Positions 2,617 through 25,004 of a DNA stretch of 64,000 bases are shown here, one piece after another. The notes beneath the pieces were generated by a model. The model searched no databases, was not told the DNA's origin, and saw only the letters and a list, made by a program, of their open reading frames with translations. The translations under genes were made by a program, and so were the position numbers. The number at the start of each line of letters is the position of its first letter. The stretch's first letter is position 1. Location of the stretch: assembly GCA_021527695.1 (NCBI GenBank), contig JAKFAO010000001.1, positions 1,984,001 to 2,048,000 of the forward strand. Reading direction: 5' to 3'. The DNA is from Naematelia aurantialba (taxonomy: Eukaryota; Basidiomycota; Tremellomycetes; Tremellales; Naemateliaceae).

Positions 2617-2793
2617 CTGCTGTCCCAATCCAATAGACAGACGTACAAGACAGGTGCCCAGTGCAGCAGTGGCAGTGTGACAGTGAATGGCCAGGTCAAG
2701 CACAATGTAAACACAACATGCATCCAATGAAGCATGGCATGACGGCCCTTGCCACTAATCAACGCTACGGGCGTCACGATTGTAACCGCGTCT

Positions 2794-5040
2794 CTACTCG
2801 GCCACCGGCATCAGCTCCTCCTCGTCCTCTGCGTCGAACGCGTCGTCCGGCACTTTGTACAGCCGCACAATGGGCTATGCGGAATCAGCACATGACAGAT
2901 TGGACCAGGCAAGAAACGCAAAATGCAGCGCCTTGACTGGAACAAGGGAATCGAGGCTCACGTTGTTGGGGTCTTTGACCAGGATGTACTTGCCCTCTGG
3001 CTGCTTGAGGACCAAATCGGCAATAGTGCGTACGATACCCCAACCGTTGTTGAGTGAGACGTTCATCTGGCGCGCAAAGTCGGCGGGCTTGTACGACTGC
3101 ACGCCGACGATGACGTGTCGCTGAGTGTCGCGGGGGTTGGCGCGAGAGATGTACCTGAGCAGTCAGCGCTGTATCGCCCCAGTCATCCCGGTATCATTGT
3201 CTAGGTGTCGCTGTGTCCAGGTATTACAGTAATCGGGCATTGCAGTATCCAGGTGTCACCGTGTCCCTGTGTGACAGTGTCCAGGTATCGTAGATGTACC
3301 CAGGATCGGGAGCCCAGAGGGGGTAGACGAAGGACGGGGTAGACGAATAACGGCACTCACCCCATCTTCATCTGGTCGACACCTGCGAGGATGCCCTGGA
3401 CGGCCCACCGGGCGAGTTTGGCGCTGTTGTTCTTCATCTCGCCAGCGACGATCGCGCCCCTCTGCGTGTCGAGGTACTTTCTCCACTCGAGCGCCTTGGC
3501 GGCACCGCCCTGAGCCTTGGGGTCAAACTCGTTCAACGCCTTTACAGTGACCAAGCTATCCTTCTTGCCCTGGTACGCGTCGACCTCGGTACGCAGGACG
3601 AGGTCGAGCTCCTCGTCCTCGGCGACTGACAGGTCAAACTTCCGGTATCGGTACAGGCAAGAAGCGGGGAGGTCGGTCTCGTCCTCTGCAGAGTAGAACG
3701 GGTTGGGGTTGGGCTCGTAAGCCTTTGAGGTGGCCAGGATGACCTGGGACGAAAAGTTCTGGTTGATGTATGTCGCTTCGAGGGACAAGGAGCCCGACGA
3801 ATTGAGGTTGGTCGGGTCGTCAGAGTCGGCAGGCGGGTCTTGGGCATTCTCGTTGACGGTGATGTAATCGAATGGGCCGCCCTCGCGCTTGTCGATGAAC
3901 AGCTGGTCGCCTCGGCGATCCAGCACCAAATCCCACGAGTTGACGGACCGTGGCGCACACATGAGCACGGACAGAATCGCATCCGTCGCAAAGATCTGCC
4001 CGGCCCTTTTCTCAGCCAGCTTGTTCTGTCAGCTTTGCCACTGTCTCGATATTGATGGAGGATCTTGAGAAAGCTGAGACAGTGGCAGGGAGAGGTGACA
4101 TACCTGATTGATAATGGGGTCGTCCGAAGTCGAGGGGTTGTACCGGACGCGGTCGAGAATTTCCAGAGGCTTCTCGTTGCGCGTGTTGATGCGGTCGTAC
4201 GCCTTGTCGTATGCCTGGATTTTACCGTGCGCCTCGCTGGTGAATATCAGTATCAGCTGCACGCGGTGCAGTTTGGCCGTAGAGCTCACAGGTCCTCGGG
4301 AGGCTCAACGCTGAGGTTGAGCTTGGACAGCCGGCTGAACTCGATCTCCTCTATGATCTGCCAGTCGGGGCTGATGGTGACTGAGGAATCCCTCGTCCGC
4401 TGTGGCTGCACGCTGTCAGCTCCGCGCTTCTTGCCTTACTCTTGGTCGTGGCTGGAGAATGCAACAGAATCTGCCCGACAAACCTTGTTCCAATCGTTGT
4501 ACCCATTCCTGCCTCCTCCCCGACCGCCTCTGCCTCCGAACGCTCCTCGTCCGAAACCTCCCCGACCGCCTCTGGGAGCACCACGTCCGCCCAGGACATT
4601 CCCGCGCCCTCTGCCGGCTGCGCCGCGCATCGGTGTCCTTCCCCTCACGCCCGCCCGCGCACCACTGTCCACCAGCGAGAAGCTCTTCTCGTCCTCTTCG
4701 TGCACGTAGCCAAAGGCGTTGATCTCGCTCGCGCCGTACGCCTCGCGGCCCTGGCGCCGGCTCGGTACACCCGCCGCCCGTCCGCCCCGCCCCGTGGTGG
4801 GCTCGAGCGCAGGGTCGTGCCAGTCGGCAATACGTGTGATCTTGTCAGACTTGGAGAACGGCGCATATGGGATACTAAGAGCACACCTCGTCAGCTCGGA
4901 TGTGATGAAGCGCAGGGTTCAAACGGGCACGGTGAGCGTTGGACTGACTCTTTGAACTGCGCGGGAAGCGTGCTCGTACTTGGCCCCCACGAGCCGTCGT
5001 CGTTGTCGTGGATGCTGGGAAGGGTAAAGTCGAGCGCCAT
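2794..5040 (-). CDS. Translation initiation factor eIF3 subunit d
   Basis: Seven exons read on the minus strand (5040-4949, 4874-4484, 4405-4290, 4236-4104, 4025-3361, 3154-2962, 2874-2794) encode 556 residues. The protein follows eIF3d from end to end: an N-terminal FTLP segment, DIPYAPFSK, an acidic FHEEDE-like stretch ([14 protein letters not shown]), an Arg/Gly-rich insert, then the conserved cap-binding fold with [40 protein letters not shown] and KDPNN, and an acidic tail. In animals eIF3d binds the mRNA cap for non-canonical initiation; that role here is inferred from family. The Arg/Gly-rich insert (about nt 4500-4640) carries many RGG and RG units, is absent from the human protein, and would favour RNA binding. 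The start codon gives the expected family N-terminus. The first donor is GTCAGT. Confidence 0.95.
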
Positions 5041-17836: not shown

Positions 17837-19682
17837 ATGTCAGGTCAGCACAACCATACTCGGCCTACGTTGACTGACGATGGTCGCTAGGGTTCCAAAA
17901 TGCAGGCGTCACGAAAGGTCCGTCCCACCCCTTCCAATACGGCATGGTCCACCGTCTGCGTCTGGCAGGCGTAAACAGCTCGCCCGGCGGCTGTATCCGG
18001 AGCTTCTCGAGCCTTTCGAGGCCTGGAACAGCACTTCAAACAAGTGCAAGCAGAGCTGATGGTTCTGGGATAGGCATGATGATGGTCCTCGCCGTGAACA
18101 CGATTGCTGTTGCGCTGCTGGACATCAAGCCGTATATCCATTTGCAGGTCGTGCCGCACATGACAAAGTACCACCAAGTGAGTATCTCGCGGGTCTAGAA
18201 ACGTTGTCTACTGCCTGATTCTTTGTCTGCTTGAGTCCTCTCGCTGGTGAATAATCACATCGTGCATGCTTGATAGTTCTCGCCGGCGGATAACATAGTC
18301 TTCCAGGAGCTTGTTGGGAGCAACCCGCTGATATTCCCAGTTCTGGAGACTTTTGGTGCACCCTTTCGCATTTGCAAATTCGACCGAGCTGTTGATGGGC
18401 GAGCTGCTGCTGTACAACGTCGGCACAGGTATAGAGAGGTAAGCGTCTGTGTTCGAAGCTGGGCACTCGCAGGGATGCGGGCAACGGCTGATCGGTGTGA
18501 TAGGTCGTTTGGGCCGAGGAAGTACTCGGTACGCCCGGTGGATCACGCCATTGAATCAGCACTGACAGCGCACAGTCTTTCGTCCTCCTCTCGTCGCTCG
18601 TCTCTTCCTTGATCTCCTTTATCGGCATCATAGCGCTGCATAAGTTTGGGGTGATCGCAATCCCTGCCGGTCCCTACGGCATCATCTTCAGCCTGTACGT
18701 CCCTCCCTTCCAACGCCTCGGTGTTGCATGGCCTGGTCCGGTCTTATCTTGCCTTTCTTAGCCTTTCTTTGTCTTGCCCACTCTGATGTGTGTCTAGGCT
18801 ATGGCAACAATATCGGACCGTGCCGTCATTGTATTCCTTTCGCCTGTTCGGTGTAGAGTTCTCAAACAAGATGTTTTCTTGGCTCTTCGCCTTACAAGTA
18901 CGTCCCCTTCCCTCCACCCGCTCCCCCTTCTTCCACTTGCGGGGTCAAGTCTTTTGCCTCGGGCGCTTGCTCACGATCGTAGCTGTTCCTGTCCTATCCT
19001 CCCCGCTCCATCCTCGCTTCACTGGCAGGAGTGTTCGCCGGCTGGATCTACCGCTCAGACAACCTAGTGATCGTTCCCACCCTGTCTCGGCGGCGGGTCC
19101 TTCGACCACTGAAGACCTACCGTATACCACTTTCGATTCACACCCTCCTCGCGAGGCTCTTTGAGCCCCTAGCCGGGTCGTCCTTGGCGCCACGGCGATC
19201 GTTGCGCGTCTTACCGGGCCAAACACGCGAGTCGGCTTCCCGCACGACCGCTAGCACGGCTGAACAATCGACTCTTCGCAGTCTACTGGCATCACGGATA
19301 GGGGCCGGAGGTGGCGGAGGCGGCGGGGCCGCTGCTCCTCGGCGACAAGGGGACTCTGGTGGTTCTGGGATCGGTACTGGCGCAGAAGGGGTGGGTGGGA
19401 CCGCAGCGGTTTCGCTGCCCTCAGCAACGGGAAGTGCGAGAGCAGCGATGGGCGAGTGGGTGAGCGAGATGACTGGCCGTGGACAGGCTGGGGCAAGAGC
19501 ACCCACAGAGGACGAGATCGGGATTCTGTCGGGCATGTTCCCGAATTCCAGCAGGGACGCCGTGGTGCGGGCGTTGCAGCGCAGGTAAGGAGCCGATCTC
19601 GAGTTAGACTTTACTGACGCGGGGTTGTAGCGATCATAATACTGCTCAAGCGGTTGAGAGGCTGTTGGATGAGAGCTCGTAG
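17837..19682 (+). CDS. DSC2: Rhomboid pseudoprotease with UBA domain (Dsc2 / UBAC2 family)
   Basis: Eight exons (17837-17843, 17891-18177, 18341-18438, 18514-18538, 18576-18694, 18798-18897, 18983-19584, 19631-19682) give 429 residues. The first coding exon has only 7 nt, and the MSGFQNAGVTKG N-terminus matches the family. A six-helix rhomboid-like fold follows (DIKPYIHLQ, FWRLLVHPFAFAN, TGIERSFGPRKY, KFGVIAIPAGPYGIIFSLL). The rhomboid GxSG serine motif is replaced by GPYG, so it should be catalytically inactive. After a Gly/Ser-rich linker comes a C-terminal UBA/CUE-like domain (GMFPNSSRDAVVRALQRS, then AVERLL). Dsc2 is a subunit of the Golgi/ER Dsc E3 ubiquitin ligase; UBAC2 serves ER-associated degradation. 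Which role applies here cannot be read from sequence. Confidence 0.88.
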
Positions 19683-19912: not shown

Positions 19913-20470
19913 CTACACGCCCGCACTTCCATTGGCCTTTGACACCCCGCTTTCCTCGTCATCCTGGCGCAGGACGACAGTCTCCTCCTGCACGACAACA
20001 GCTCCGAGCTCCCCCTCGATCTCACCGCCAAACTCCTGCAGCCGCTCCAACAGTCCATTGAGTCGACCTTCCAGCGCATCCGCCACTTCGCCAGCCGCGT
20101 CCATGGCCTTGAGAATCTCTGCTACGTCCTCGTCGGGTGCATCTCCATCTGCGTCGATATCTGCGAGCCGTAGCGCATCGATCAGAGGTTGCACTGCTAC
20201 GAGCTCCTCGGGCGTGAGCTTGGACAGGTCGATACCGATGTCCGCTGGTAGGCTGGTGATTATATCGCTGGTGTCCGCTGGAAGGCTGGTGCTTATATCG
20301 CTGGCGGTAGTGGGATTGGTGCTGCTGGTGAGACCACTGCTATTGCTGCTATCGGCGTTGTCACTGGTGCCGTTGGGAGATGGAATAGCTGCGGAGATAG
20401 GATGTAGGTGGCGCGGTTCGCTCGACGCCATGGCCTGCGCCACGAGGTCGAGGTCAGACAAATCGCTCAT
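19913..20470 (-). CDS. Hypothetical acidic helical protein, 185 residues
   Basis: An intronless frame starting MSDLSDLDLVAQAMA at 20470 and ending at 19913. The N-terminal half is Ser/Thr/Asn-rich. It includes two near-identical nonamers around SDIITSLPAD and SDISTSLPAD, then LTPEELVAVQPLIDALR, and a predicted helical or coiled-coil C-terminus (EVADALEGRLNGLLERLQEFGGEIEGEL). I do not recognise the family. It is divergent from the coronin fusion gene, with 188 bp between the starts. An in-frame ATG further upstream (20503) exists but looks less natural. Confidence 0.7.
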   Translation of the reverse strand: MSDLSDLDLVAQAMASSEPRHLHPISAAIPSPNGTSDNADSSNSSGLTSSTNPTTASDISTSLPADTSDIITSLPADIGIDLSKLTPEELVAVQPLIDALRLADIDADGDAPDEDVAEILKAMDAAGEVADALEGRLNGLLERLQEFGGEIEGELGAVVVQEETVVLRQDDEESGVSKANGSAGV

Positions 20471-20658
20471 GCTGTACGCCTTGGTCTCGAGCCGCAGAAA
20501 CAATGACAGAAGTCGAGATCTGATTCAAGTTACGAAGAAAGTAAATGGTAAACCGTGTCAGTTACCGGCGGGTCGGCTGTAGCTTCGGTCTGTCTATTCT
20601 TCCAGCCCTTGAACTCACCTGGTCTTGCAGTCACCACGCTTGACTCCCAGCTCTGAGC

Positions 20659-23600
20659 ATGGCGCCAGCACGGTTCGGGGCGTCCAAGTTCCGGAATGCC
20701 ATTCCCCACGTCCCAGGCAAGGAAGAATGGTATCGCGGCGACCTGCCGTCGAGCACTTCGACCTCGACGTCGTCGTCCCTGTCCACGTTTTCGTCAGAGC
20801 TCAAGACAAATCGCGAATGGATAGTCACACTGACTCCGGCGGGCGAGCTGTCGTACCGCCGCTATCTGGTTGGCTCGGAAGGTGGAGACCGGCACGCAGG
20901 GACAGCCAAGGTCGGTGCTGGGGGCGGAGTTGGAGATTGGGATCTGAGTCGGTTGGAGGACGGGACGCTTGCTGTTGGTGGTCTGGACGGTTCGGTGAGT
21001 CTCAGTTCTTTACTTTACCTCTTCAGGCATCGATGCTAGCGCTTATAGGAGCATCTAGATCTCGTCCTTTATCCTTGACGGAACGTTGCAGCCGAGCTAC
21101 TCAGTCGCCGCCTCGGGCTCAGCCATCACATCCATCTCGTTACATCCTACAACGCCGCAGATCCTCGCCGCATCGTCAATAGCAGCCCCGCTAGCGGTGT
21201 ATGACCTCTCTTCATCGCCTGCGTCCCCGGCAATTACGCTCGAGGTGAAAGAACCGAAGGGTTTATGGACACTGGCGTGGTCGACCGACGGCAAGCGCTT
21301 GGCCGCTGTAGGCAAGAGCGGCACCGCCTATGTCTTTGAGCCGCGGGCCAGTGTCACGCCAATAGTGTCGAAAAGCCTTGCTCTGCAACCTCTCAAGCCC
21401 GTCAGGATAGCCTGGGTAGGCGACGACATCTTTGTTACTTCTTTCTCCAAGACCCGGAACCGCGAGTACTCCCTTCTAAATACGGCGACACTCTCCCCCT
21501 CGTTCTCACAGTCGATCGACACCAGCACTGCCCCGCTCATCCCGCTTGTCGACGAGGACCGGCGGATCGTCTATGTCGCCGGACGCGGGGATATGACTCT
21601 CCGTCAAGTAGAGTTGTCCGGCGTCATGGGCTTTCAGGAGACGGTGCATGCTCTCCCGTATCCCATTTCCTGGGCAGGCATGGCGCTGGCAAGTCCCACG
21701 ACTTTACCCGTCATGCAGGCGCAGATCGCGACGGTCCTGGTTCCGGTCGTAGACAAGGACGGGGACGCTCTCCTCCCGTTAGCGATCAAGGTCCCACGCC
21801 GGCAGTTGATCGACTATCACCAGGACTTGTATCCTGACGTTCTTGGGACCGGTGAGTGCCTTCAGCTGCTGGGCTGATGTGTAGTCCCCGAGCAGACTGC
21901 TGGGGAGTGGCTGAAAGGGGAGGATAGAGCGCCTTTACGTATCTCGCTTGACCCGTCTCGGCGAGATGCATGGGAGCATGAGCTGGCAAGTCGACCCAGG
22001 CAGGCACCGCCTGCTGCCACACATCCCGTCACCATCGAACAGCAGTCGTCGTTAAACCTGCAGGAGAAGGATAAGAAGGACAACCTCTCCCCTGTGACAT
22101 CGCAAGCGCCACCTGCGACGACACCGGCCGCAAGTTCCACCCCACCGAAAGCGCCAATCACAGCTCCACCGAAGGAAGGTCTACCCCCGCTGGAGGCCGG
22201 TGAAGACTACTCCTCGACAACGTACAAAGCCCGCATCATCGCCCATCACCTTGCTGACCAGCTCGAGGTACATCGTAACCAGGGCAAAGAGGGGCCGTTG
22301 ATGGTCGCTTTGCAAGGACCGCAGGGCTGTGGTGAGTTGGAGAGTGAACAGTACGGTCCTGCCACTGACGAGTGCAGGCAAGACAACCTTATGTGATGCT
22401 TTAATGGGATACGTGAGCGAGTCACCAAGGAATTTGAAAGTTGCAGTCTTGTCTCTCGATGGTGAGCCTGACTCTTCTGCGTAGCGACCAACGGCGGGCT
22501 AACAGAATCACCAAAGACCTCTATCTCCCCTATGTAGGTCTGCAAACGGTGGCGAAAAACAATCCAGACAACAAGCTTCTCGCAGGTCGCGGTCCCCCAG
22601 GAACACATGATATCAGTCTCGCAGTACAAGTACTGAATGCTGTCCAGTCGATCAACGGTACCCCGGCCTCGTCTGTAGAATTGCCCATCTTCGACAAGAG
22701 TCTGAATGGCGGACAAGGAGACCGTAGTTCGCGGACGATACAGGTCACCGGCCCACTCGATATCTTTATCCTCGAAGGCTGGTCAATGGGCTTTGGCGCA
22801 CTGCCGCCTTCGCAGCTCAAGGAACGATACGACGCCGCAAAGTCCTCCTCTCCTTCTTCCCCACCAAAAGTATACTTCACAGACCACTCCTTGGCTTCCC
22901 TGGAGACGCTTAACCAGTCGCTGGCGGATTTCGCTTTGGCCCTGTACACACCGTTCGAGACGGTGATACAGATCGAGCCTAGTTCGTATGAGAACGTCTT
23001 CAAGTGGCGGCTGCAACAGGAACATATGATGAAGGCCCAGAACGGCGGAAATGGCATGACGGACGAACAGGTGCACAGCTTTGTTGAACGATATATGCCA
23101 GGGTACGAGTTGTGGAAGGAGGGGATCTGGGATACCAATGCGCCATGGAGTGGAAAGGGGCTGCGGATATACTTTGGGGAAGACAGGGAGGTGCTGAAAG
23201 TCGTGCGGCCTAAATTACCAGAGAAAAAAGTGGATGGCACGGTATCTGAGAGGCAAACTTTGTCAACGCCTGCTCCTGCTCCCACCAACAACGAGCGCGC
23301 AGAAACCGCAACACACGGGGTGTCACAAGCAAGTCCTGCCGCGCAGCCCGTGAACACTGCAAGTTCCAGAGTGTCTGCGAAACCTGATACCGGCACCGAC
23401 TCGGGATCTGCCGCGCCAGAGATCGGCGCTTCGACCAAATCGATTGCGAAGCCGGCTGTAGCCTCCAGCAGCAAAGCACCGTTCAACCCGAAATGGTCGC
23501 GCAAGTTTCTCGGCGGGAAATCGCCGCTCATTCCGACATATGACCAGATACCGCCTCTCGCCACCTTGCATCAAGATTCCCTTGTCCTCAAGTGCACCGA

Positions 23601-25004
23601 GAACTTTGTCTTCTTCCCCATCCAAGGTCCTGGAGGGCGTCTGGCAATTCATCCGCTCAAGAAGAAGGGTCGGATGCTTGTTGGTGGAGAGGGGTTCCTA
23701 AGCGGCGGATCGGAGCTGGTAGACTTTGATGCTGAGCTTGGTGGGAAGCGGGTGGCCTTGGCTGGTGAGGACGGAGCCATACGGGTATGGACGATCGAGG
23801 GGGAAGGTGTGCATGGACCTGGACCGGAAGCAGAAACAGTATTGAAAGGTACGTTGTGGAAGCAGTGTGCTTGCTGAGTTGCCAGGTAAAGGGATTGATA
23901 AAATTGCGCAAATCGCGTTCCACCCCACCGCTAGACATCTGTTGACGGCCTTGACGAATGATCATGGCAAAGCGTCTCTCCGTTTCTGGGACGTTCAACG
24001 TGGAGAGGAGGGCAAGCATGTTGACCTGGGAACCGCGGGCGTGTTCAACATGTCGTGGTCTCCGCTTGGAAGCAAAGTGGCCGTCTCAACGAAAGACGGG
24101 CGTATCGTTGTTCTGGATCCCCGGAATCCGCACACGACGGTGTCGGGCAAAGCACACGACAGTGCTCGGTCGTTCCAGCTCGCATGGATAGACGCCACGC
24201 ACCTTGTCTCTGTGGGCTTCTCCCGTGGCTCTATGCGCAAGATCAACCTCTACACCATCGGCTCGTCCATCGAGACGATATCATCCTTGACGATGGACGT
24301 ATCGCCGTCCGTGCTTTTCCCACACTATGATCCCGATACCTCGATACTCTACGCATGGGGCAAAGGCGAACGTGTCATCCAGGCTTTCGAAGTCCACCCC
24401 GACAACGCTTTGGAACCAATCGCCAGGTTAGCGAGCTTCACGTCGGGTGACGCTCAGCTAGGAGTGGCGTGGCTGCCTAAACGCCTGGTAGACGTGCACA
24501 AAGTCGAGGTGATGAAGGCATTGCGACTAACTGCAAAGTCGATCGAGGAGGTGTCGTTCACGATCCCGCGGAACAAGCCGGATTTCTTCCAGGATGACAT
24601 ATACTTGCCTACGCTGGATGTGGAGAGTTATCCCAGCACGGCAAAAGAGTGGCTGAGCGGAGAGGACAAGGCGCCAAGACGTCTGGACCTCAAGCCCGGC
24701 AATATGACACTCCGTACGTGCAGTCACTACGATCATTGCAGGCACAGAAGAGAGCGTAGGGTTATGGTCGCGGAGTGTAGATACAGAGTAGGAAGCGCTT
24801 GCTGATGATGCGTCTGTAGTCTCGGAAGCTCCGCAGACGACCACGCCTGCGAAGAAGCGATTCGTTCCCGCTGCTGATATCATGACGGAAGAGGAGAAGA
24901 AGAGACAAGAGATGGACGAGTTGTTTGCGAAAGCCAAGCTGGACGAGAGCAGTGATGAGGAAGAGGTCAGGACGGGGATTGATCCCCCTGACGACGATTG
25001 GTAG
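20659..25004 (+). CDS. Coronin-7-like protein with an embedded glycerate-kinase (Tda10-like) domain
   Basis: Seven exons (20659-20994, 21059-21851, 21885-22331, 22378-22461, 22517-23848, 23886-24713, 24820-25004) total 4005 nt, 1334 residues. Residues about 1-440 form a first coronin propeller: SKFRN then KEEWYRGDLP at the N-terminus, WTLAWSTDGKRLAAVG, and the DUF1900-type segment with VYVAGRGDM. Residues about 480-785 are a complete P-loop kinase of the D-glycerate 3-kinase/Tda10 family: GPQGCGKTT (Walker A), LSLDDLYLPY, GRGPPGTHD, PIFDKS, FILEGW, WRLQQEH and GMTDEQVHSFVERYMPGY. Residues about 870-1270 are a second coronin propeller (SRKFLGGKSPLIP, FNMSWSPLGSKVAVS, the DUF1900-type ILYAWGKGERVIQAFEVHP, and FFQDDIYLP). 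The tail is helical-acidic and ends DPPDDDW, like Arp2/3-binding acidic motifs. Kinase and second propeller share one uninterrupted 1332-nt exon, so the fusion does not depend on intron prediction there. Confidence 0.9.
21852..21884 (+). other. 33-nt intron in the coronin fusion gene
   Basis: GTGAGT..GGGCTGATG..TAG. Retention would keep frame but brings an in-frame TGA, and splicing joins DVLGT to VPEQTAGEWLKGE, the expected coronin sequence. A branch-like GCTGAT lies about 11 nt before the acceptor. Confidence 0.85.

What the first reader, a model, noticed from the sequence alone, without database searches (positions are those of the whole stretch)
20659..25004. Coronin-7-like double propeller with a whole glycerate-kinase domain between the propellers
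The gene encodes two coronin propellers, each with its own N-terminal signature and DUF1900-type segment, and an acidic DDDW tail. A complete Tda10/D-glycerate 3-kinase domain lies between them, with Walker A GPQGCGKTT, SLDD, GRGPPGTHD, ILEGW, WRLQQEH and MTDEQVHSFVERYMP. Kinase and second propeller share one uninterrupted 1332-nt exon, and the P-loop exon continues from the end of the first propeller, so this is not a gene-merging artefact. The kinase motifs look intact. I know of no described coronin carrying a small-molecule kinase. The arrangement suggests coupling of actin/Golgi traffic to glycerate or another small phosphorylation substrate, or a kinase fold repurposed as a nucleotide switch.
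Basis: partly seen in the sequence, partly recalled or inferred. Interest (0 to 1): 0.87.

Follow-up and report, generated by a model that had tools for sequence, protein, structure and literature searches.

The report
Coronin with built-in glycerate kinase
This jelly-fungus gene really does join an actin-regulating protein to a complete small-molecule kinase, but the same fusion was described in related yeasts in 2011; what is added here is that it is found more widely in this group of fungi and may be the only glycerate kinase in this genome.

Summary
Window 20659-25004 (+) encodes one 1334-residue, 7-exon protein: coronin propeller, D-glycerate 3-kinase domain, coronin propeller, CA-type tail. 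Orthologues with the same order occur in Tremellales and Trichosporonales, so it is not a merging artefact. [quoted passage not shown] The genome matches Naematelia aurantialba NX-20 by longest-contig length.

Added here: (1) the fusion is not restricted to Filobasidiella; the propeller tree fits one gain and at least two losses. (2) The kinase is under constraint: 50 of 51 columns conserved in stand-alone enzymes are kept. (3) Unlike C. neoformans and N. encephala, this genome shows no stand-alone D-glycerate 3-kinase in six searches and no class I or II glycerate kinase over cut-off. The kinase sits in the disordered linker between the propellers. Most likely it is an active metabolic enzyme carried by a working class-3 coronin; whether the activities are coupled is unknown.

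The parts
20659..25004 (+). Whole gene: 7 exons, 1334-aa class-3 (tandem) coronin with internal D-glycerate 3-kinase domain
   Evidence: Exons 20659-20994, 21059-21851, 21885-22331, 22378-22461, 22517-23848, 23886-24713, 24820-25004; open frame 4005 nt with stop; orthologue P0001 72% identity, 100% of query covered
20659..21955 (+). Propeller 1 (aa 1-400; introns 20995-21058 and 21852-21884 inside)
   Evidence: Matches propeller 2 exon of the same gene at 2.9e-14; 0.73 identical to N. encephala here; weaker second stretches of WD40_4 and DUF1899
21956..22195 (+). Linker 1 (aa 401-480), low-complexity, poorly conserved
   Evidence: Identity to 8 orthologues 0.17-0.38; composition; matching region mostly pLDDT 23-34 in the model of orthologue P0030
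22196..23226 (+). D-glycerate 3-kinase (Tda10/GLYK) domain (aa 481-790), interrupted by introns 22332-22377 and 22462-22516
   Evidence: 6ckg 1.1e-65, 1odf (YGR205w) 7.9e-36, 7xpc GLYK 2.1e-34; 50 of 51 conserved columns kept
22316..22385 (+). Walker A GPQGCGKT, split by the 46-nt intron 22332-22377
   Evidence: Translation of joined exons
22517..23848 (+). 1332-nt exon that carries the kinase from the second D of SLDD on, linker 2 and the start of propeller 2 in one frame
23227..23496 (+). Linker 2 (aa 791-880), low-complexity
   Evidence: Identity to 8 orthologues 0.09-0.26; matching region pLDDT 24-32 in the P0030 model
23497..24839 (+). Propeller 2 (aa 881-1280; introns 23849-23885 and 24714-24819 inside)
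   Evidence: Coronin-1C 7sty 3.2e-48 over aa 904-1271; WD40_4 1217-1261 and DUF1899 895-939
24840..25004 (+). C-terminal CA-type tail (aa 1281-1334) ending DPPDDDW, and stop
   Evidence: Sequence; class-3 coronins end in a CA domain (PMC3203266); in human Coro7 the acidic motif with W924 binds Arp3 (PMC12592476 passages)

Best explanation
This is the Naematelia orthologue of a class-3 (coronin-7/POD-1 type) coronin that, in or before the common ancestor of Tremellales and Trichosporonales, took a D-glycerate 3-kinase domain into the long flexible linker between its two propellers. The kinase is an active class III glycerate kinase (D-glycerate + ATP to 3-phosphoglycerate + ADP) and in this species probably the only glycerate kinase. 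The propellers and CA tail do the usual class-3 coronin work of binding F-actin and Arp2/3 and taking apart branch junctions. Shown: gene structure, domain order, orthology, conservation, and no other class III glycerate kinase found in six searches. Inferred: catalytic activity, action on actin and Arp2/3, and that the two activities are tethered rather than mechanically coupled.
For: Domain assignments. A kinase domain in 37 of 62 tandem-coronin rows examined; all 34 rows with a complete kinase keep the Walker A motif, the other 3 are truncated. 50 of 51 columns conserved in at least 90% of 28 stand-alone kinases are kept in the window protein, 44 of 51 in all 30 fused kinases compared. Kinase identity between orthologues tracks the propellers (0.80 against 0.73/0.81 to N. 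encephala; 0.60 against 0.60/0.64 to C. neoformans) while linkers drift (0.09-0.38). Fused kinases form one clade, 96/91. Only the fused copy in this genome by 4 protein queries and 2 motif patterns; no class I match over cut-off, no class II match. The S. cerevisiae YGR205w product is reported to have activity like the Arabidopsis enzyme (passage of PMC3087521). Human Coro7 has a 71-aa propeller linker that permits several placements of propeller 1 (passages of PMC12592476). The model of orthologue P0030 shows ordered propellers and kinase joined by low-confidence linkers.
Against: No activity, RNA or protein evidence for this gene, and no measured activity of any fused kinase in the papers I opened. 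In several Cryptococcus species and N. encephala a stand-alone enzyme is present as well, so there the fused copy could do something else. Vanrija albida and Cutaneotrichosporon sp. HIS471 coronins lack the kinase, so it is dispensable. The window kinase has V for a conserved L, and 5 of 30 fused kinases have R for the conserved H723. With five long rows left out, support for the fused clade falls to SH-aLRT 61. The genome searches could miss a stand-alone gene split into very short exons or lying in an assembly gap; the 84-nt P-loop exon of the fused gene itself was reported only with its own sequence.
Confidence: 0.62

Rival explanations
1. The kinase domain is a nucleotide- or metabolite-gated switch: ATP/glycerate binding changes the reach between the two propellers and so regulates debranching; catalysis is secondary.
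For: The kinase lies exactly in the linker that sets the reach between propellers (PMC12592476 passages). In C. neoformans it coexists with a stand-alone enzyme, so selection there may be for something beyond bulk metabolism.
Against: About 80-90 low-complexity residues flank it on each side, a poor transmission path. Glycerate-kinase-family positions are kept. The model's pTM is 0.42 and gives no sign of fixed domain packing, though the tool shows no interface scores. Absent in some relatives.
Confidence: 0.13
2. Neutral passenger: an accidental fusion in a tolerant linker, kept because the kinase (or its expression) is useful but with no functional link to actin. This overlaps with the best explanation, which does not require coupling.
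For: Insertion site is a long, unconserved linker (human linker of 71 aa); kinase-less coronins in Vanrija albida and Cutaneotrichosporon sp. HIS471 keep both propellers. A second unrelated enzyme, dUTPase, is fused to the other coronin of the same fungi (PMC3203266).
Against: Retention in two orders with one gain and few losses suggests some benefit. Enzyme fusions to both coronins of one group are a coincidence that neutrality leaves unexplained.
Confidence: 0.2
3. Annotation artefact: neighbouring genes merged.
For: No RNA reads available here; the 2011 paper notes that only the termini had EST/cDNA support in Filobasidiella.
Against: Continuous exons bridge both junctions; the same order in 26 named species or strains.
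Confidence: 0.02
4. The kinase domain acts on another small substrate or is a degenerate pseudokinase.
For: Substrate cannot be read from sequence; relatives with a pantothenate-kinase-like fold act on other substrates (recalled; the title of the YGR205w structure paper seen names that resemblance).
Against: Family motifs kept (GRGPPGTHD, FDKS, GQGDR, EGW, WRLQQEH, RYMPGYE); P0030 model against C. neoformans D-glycerate 3-kinase 6ckg: 38% identity, 1.6-1.7 A rmsd.
Confidence: 0.1

Closest known systems
Filobasidiella (Cryptococcus) class-3 coronins with D-glycerate 3-kinase domain (2011 coronin survey, PMC3203266)
   Same: Same domain order, same bridging by long exons; C. neoformans protein P0009 aligns over 100% at 57% identity.
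   Different: The paper calls it species-specific to Filobasidiella and absent from class-3 coronins of other basidiomycetes, with an additional stand-alone GLYK; here it is in Naematelia and no stand-alone enzyme was found.
Human Coro7 / POD-1 (class-3 coronins)
   Same: Two propellers plus C-terminal CA region with a conserved tryptophan (PMC12592476 passages).
   Different: Human propeller linker is 71 residues, without a kinase.
D-glycerate 3-kinase, class III (plant GLYK, S. cerevisiae YGR205w 1odf, C. neoformans 6ckg)
   Same: Whole catalytic domain, 1.1e-65 to 6ckg, motifs intact.
   Different: Stand-alone enzymes of roughly 300 aa; the fused kinases are apart from the Cryptococcus/Kwoniella stand-alone clade in both trees.
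Tremellomycete short coronin-dUTPase fusion (PMC3203266)
   Same: The other coronin of the same fungi is also fused to a small-molecule enzyme; this genome has the two side by side in a spliceable frame.
   Different: Different coronin class, enzyme and position (C-terminal).

Membership tests
Class-3 (tandem) coronin | Two coronin domains in tandem in one polypeptide | tested here: met
   Propeller 2: WD40_4, DUF1899, coronin structures. Propeller 1: matches propeller 2 at 2.9e-14, orthology to named coronin-7/class-3 proteins; its DUF1899 alone did not reach the limit
Class-3 (tandem) coronin | C-terminal CA region with acidic end and conserved W | tested here: met
   Tail ...EEEKKRQEMDELFAKAKLDESSDEEEVRTGIDPPDDDW read directly against the definition in PMC3203266; judged by eye, no profile
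Class-3 (tandem) coronin | No coiled coil | not tested
   No coiled-coil prediction was run
Class-3 (tandem) coronin | Binds F-actin and Arp2/3, debranching | not testable with these tools
   Needs purified protein
D-glycerate 3-kinase (class III, Tda10/GLYK) | Sequence and fold of the family | tested here: met
   Sequence; fold tested on orthologue P0030, not on the window protein
D-glycerate 3-kinase (class III, Tda10/GLYK) | Family-conserved positions incl. Walker A, DD, GTHD, DKS, EGW, RYMP | tested here: met
   50 of 51 columns
D-glycerate 3-kinase (class III, Tda10/GLYK) | ATP-dependent phosphorylation of D-glycerate | not testable with these tools
   Needs enzyme assay
Coronin-glycerate kinase fusion of PMC3203266 | Kinase between the two coronin domains | tested here: met
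Coronin-glycerate kinase fusion of PMC3203266 | Additional stand-alone D-glycerate 3-kinase in the same genome (a described accompaniment, not the definition of the fusion) | tested here: not met
   Only the fused copy found by 4 protein queries and 2 patterns

The most novel reading that the evidence does not exclude
In N. aurantialba (and perhaps several Kwoniella and Trichosporonales) the fused copy has replaced the stand-alone enzyme, so all glycerate phosphorylation is carried on an actin/Arp2/3-branch protein, and the kinase's occupancy feeds back on branch disassembly or places 3-phosphoglycerate production at actin-rich or ER-Golgi sites.
Probability: 0.15. Interest if true: 0.7.

Novelty: new member of a known kind. 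Interest (0 to 1): 0.36.

Why it matters
The 2011 report left open why an actin-binding protein should carry a glycerate kinase. A species in which the fused domain may be the only glycerate kinase, together with relatives that lack the domain or keep both versions, makes a natural test set that separates 'metabolic enzyme carried along' from 'regulator of actin'. It also corrects the idea that the fusion is limited to Filobasidiella.

Tried and rejected
Gene-merging artefact: rejected. Pseudokinase: disfavoured. The first acceptor considered by eye for intron 4 (intron ending at 22505) broke the frame; an intron ending at 22516 gives SLDDLY as in orthologues. The origin of the fused kinase is unresolved: one search places the N. 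encephala (P0102) and Vanrija pseudolonga (P0103) stand-alone enzymes as sister to the fused clade (97/88) but warns of long branches; leaving out P0103 and four other long rows in a quick tree changes that arrangement and support for the fused clade falls to SH-aLRT 61, so I claim no sister group. The Cryptococcus/Kwoniella stand-alone enzymes stay apart in both trees. Reading losses of the stand-alone enzyme is only suggestive: 9 of the 26 named fused species or strains appear by name among its clusters, one of them (C. wingfieldii) as a 166-aa record, but 120 of 195 clusters were listed and names are cut short. The profile search of this genome with a stand-alone alignment (A1) was not possible. 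Rfam found nothing in the window.

Literature: (coronin with D-glycerate 3-kinase) gave PMC3203266 alone; (coronin with glycerate kinase) gave PMC8325962 alone, where the words mean a phosphoglycerate kinase promoter (passages); two searches gave no other relevant title. Searches were looser; only 20 of 113 and only 20 of 27 papers were listed, and most listed papers were not opened. The library holds open-licence papers only. Papers opened: PMC3203266 (passages and section 8), PMC10970406, PMC3087521, PMC8777972, PMC12592476, PMC8325962 (passages).

Dropped rows: weak bacterial-type WD40 hits P0037, P0038 and P0184-P0193 were not put in the kinase scan. Some scanned rows are fragments (for example P0032, P0035, P0159, P0161, P0162, P0178-P0180). 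The propeller-2 tree used 37 of the 62 rows. The kinase tree used the window, 29 of the 36 other proteins with a kinase, and 28 of the 120 listed clusters; P0116 (166 aa) was left out. The structure alignment A2 had 28 rows. Family and gene names such as Tda10, DUF1900 and POD-1 as class 3 are in part recalled.
Full report
1. What is there. The + strand of 20659-25004 holds one gene of seven exons and six GT..AG introns; the joined frame is 4005 nt with stop, 1334 aa. Exon 21885-22331 runs from the end of propeller 1 to the first part of the P-loop; exon 22517-23848 (1332 nt) runs from SLDD through the kinase and linker 2 into propeller 2. At all six junctions the sequence reads on in register with orthologues P0001, P0009, P0010, P0021 and P0160, except that P0001 carries about 15 extra residues after junction 1, probably an unspliced intron in that prediction.

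2. Domains. Pfam: WD40_4 (6.7e-30) and DUF1899 (2.5e-7), best stretch of each in propeller 2; the second stretch of each was counted at the lax limit of E 10; for the kinase only weak generic P-loop models. In the six-frame genome search DUF1899 rings at propeller 2 (24.5 bits, over cut-off) and at the short coronin on C4 (62.8 bits), not at propeller 1. Propeller 1 used as a query matches the propeller 2 exon (2.9e-14, 25% identity), so both are coronin propellers. Solved chains: 6ckg D-glycerate 3-kinase 1.1e-65 over 501-780; 1odf 7.9e-36; 7xpc GLYK 2.1e-34; coronins 7sty 3.2e-48 and others over propeller 2. The tail ends EEEKKRQEMDELFAKAKLDESSDEEEVRTGIDPPDDDW, the CA type of class-3 coronins (PMC3203266 section 8), whose tryptophan contacts Arp3 in human Coro7 (PMC12592476 passages).

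3. Whose genome. The window lies on contig C1 of 2,546,384 bases in a 20,997,016-base, 15-contig assembly. PMC8777972 (passages) gives 15 contigs and a longest contig of 2,546,384 bp for Naematelia aurantialba NX-20, total 20,998,359 bp. The name is inferred; the totals differ by 1,343 bases.

4. Distribution. Among 62 rows scanned (window, P0001-P0036, P0159-P0183) a kinase domain was found in 37 and not in 25; 34 of the 37 contain GPQG[CS]GKT, the other three are truncated before it. Named carriers: 26 species or strains of Naematelia, Cryptococcus, Kwoniella, Kockovaella, Cutaneotrichosporon and Cryptotrichosporon and one Tremellales isolate, that is, both Tremellales and Trichosporonales. 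Without kinase: Vanrija albida P0031, Cutaneotrichosporon sp. HIS471 P0033, the environmental P0032, P0035 and P0036, and all of P0164-P0183 (Phaffia, Pucciniomycotina, Ceraceosorus, Tilletia, Pilobolus, animals, an oomycete and unnamed rows; some are fragments). Phaffia is in Cystofilobasidiales, same class. On the propeller-2 tree (37 rows) kinase presence needs 4 changes, at least 3 forced by starred branches; the simplest reading is one gain after the split from Phaffia (forks of modest support, 81/81 and 87/74) and losses in Vanrija (with env35), in HIS471 (sister to C. spelunceum, which has the kinase) and perhaps in env32. HIS471 keeps GLPPLKGDEDDTSTS, which matches the start of the kinase region in C. 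spelunceum, as expected of a deletion, though a gene-model error is not excluded.

5. Constraint. Across 28 stand-alone and 30 fused kinases, 51 columns are at least 90% conserved in the stand-alone set; the window keeps 50 (V for L at 538), all fused keep 44, at least 90% of fused keep 50; the exception is H723 (R in 5 of 30). Regional identities to eight orthologues show the kinase moving with the propellers and the linkers at 0.09-0.38. An AlphaFold2 model of orthologue P0030 (28-row alignment, mean pLDDT 74.7, pTM 0.42) has ordered propellers and kinase, with linkers mostly at pLDDT 23-34 and a low-confidence tail; P0030 lacks part of propeller 1, and the window protein itself was not modelled. 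The best Foldseek matches include Coronin-1B/1C and 6ckg, titled C. neoformans H99 D-glycerate 3-kinase.

6. Stand-alone enzyme. C. neoformans has both (P0009 fused; P0039 stand-alone, 100% identical to the 6ckg segment), as PMC3203266 states for Filobasidiella. N. encephala also has both (P0001, P0102). In this genome four protein queries found only the fused locus (one search also lists a 12.4-bit match on C4 at E 0.66). The pattern for GRGxxGTHD has two matches, the fused locus and one on C15 reading GSGAEGTHD, not followed up; the pattern for RYMPxYE has one, the fused locus. Class I glycerate kinase gives one match of 17.1 bits, below its 23.3 cut-off and with stops; class II (MOFRL) gives none. 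The stand-alone queries find the fused exon at 45-48% identity, which serves as a positive control for a long exon; the 84-nt P-loop exon was reported only with its own sequence, so a gene of very short exons could be missed.

7. Origin of the domain. Fused kinases form one clade (96/91) in the careful 58-row tree. With five long rows removed and a quick search, the label still needs one change but with SH-aLRT 61. The Cryptococcus/Kwoniella stand-alone enzymes are a separate clade in both. The sister of the fused clade is not settled.

8. Prior knowledge. PMC3203266 (section 8 read; [quoted passage not shown] Searches for coronin with glycerate kinase terms gave no other account.

9. How it probably works. 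[quoted passage not shown] Here the kinase is placed in just that linker with about 80 and 90 low-complexity residues on its two sides, which would leave both activities free. I commit to an active glycerate kinase tethered in a functional class-3 coronin (0.62); coupling is open. Enzyme activity of the yeast homologue is taken from a passage of PMC3087521 that cites earlier work.

10. Score. A real, conserved and odd fusion, but in print since 2011; additions are the wider range, the one-gain, few-losses pattern and the likely loss of the stand-alone enzyme here. Interest 0.36.

Noticed in passing
L017 (G000:C4:89600-93400), coronin DUF1899 at about 644, dUTPase 2724-3194: The short coronin of this genome is followed in an open, spliceable frame by a dUTPase domain (profile positions 2-114 of 129), as PMC3203266 describes for Tremellomycetes; a second dUTPase lies at C1:1865838-1866462. 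Both coronins of this fungus thus seem to carry a small-molecule enzyme. The exact splice was not settled.
   Followed up: partly
P0033 against P0027: Cutaneotrichosporon sp. HIS471 class-3 coronin lacks the kinase but keeps a stub of its N-terminal edge, while the closely related C. spelunceum has the whole domain: looks like a recent deletion.
   Followed up: partly
P0102: Naematelia encephala has a stand-alone D-glycerate 3-kinase, 44% identical to the Cryptococcus one, which was not found in the window's genome although both share the fused gene at 72%.
   Followed up: partly
window 21852-21884 and 23849-23885: Two introns of only 33 and 37 nt, both fitting orthologous protein sequence.
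   Followed up: no
window 18983-19585 (+) and 19916-20524 (-): Neighbouring open frames of about 200 aa each with no Pfam match at E 0.01; not shown to be genes.
   Followed up: no
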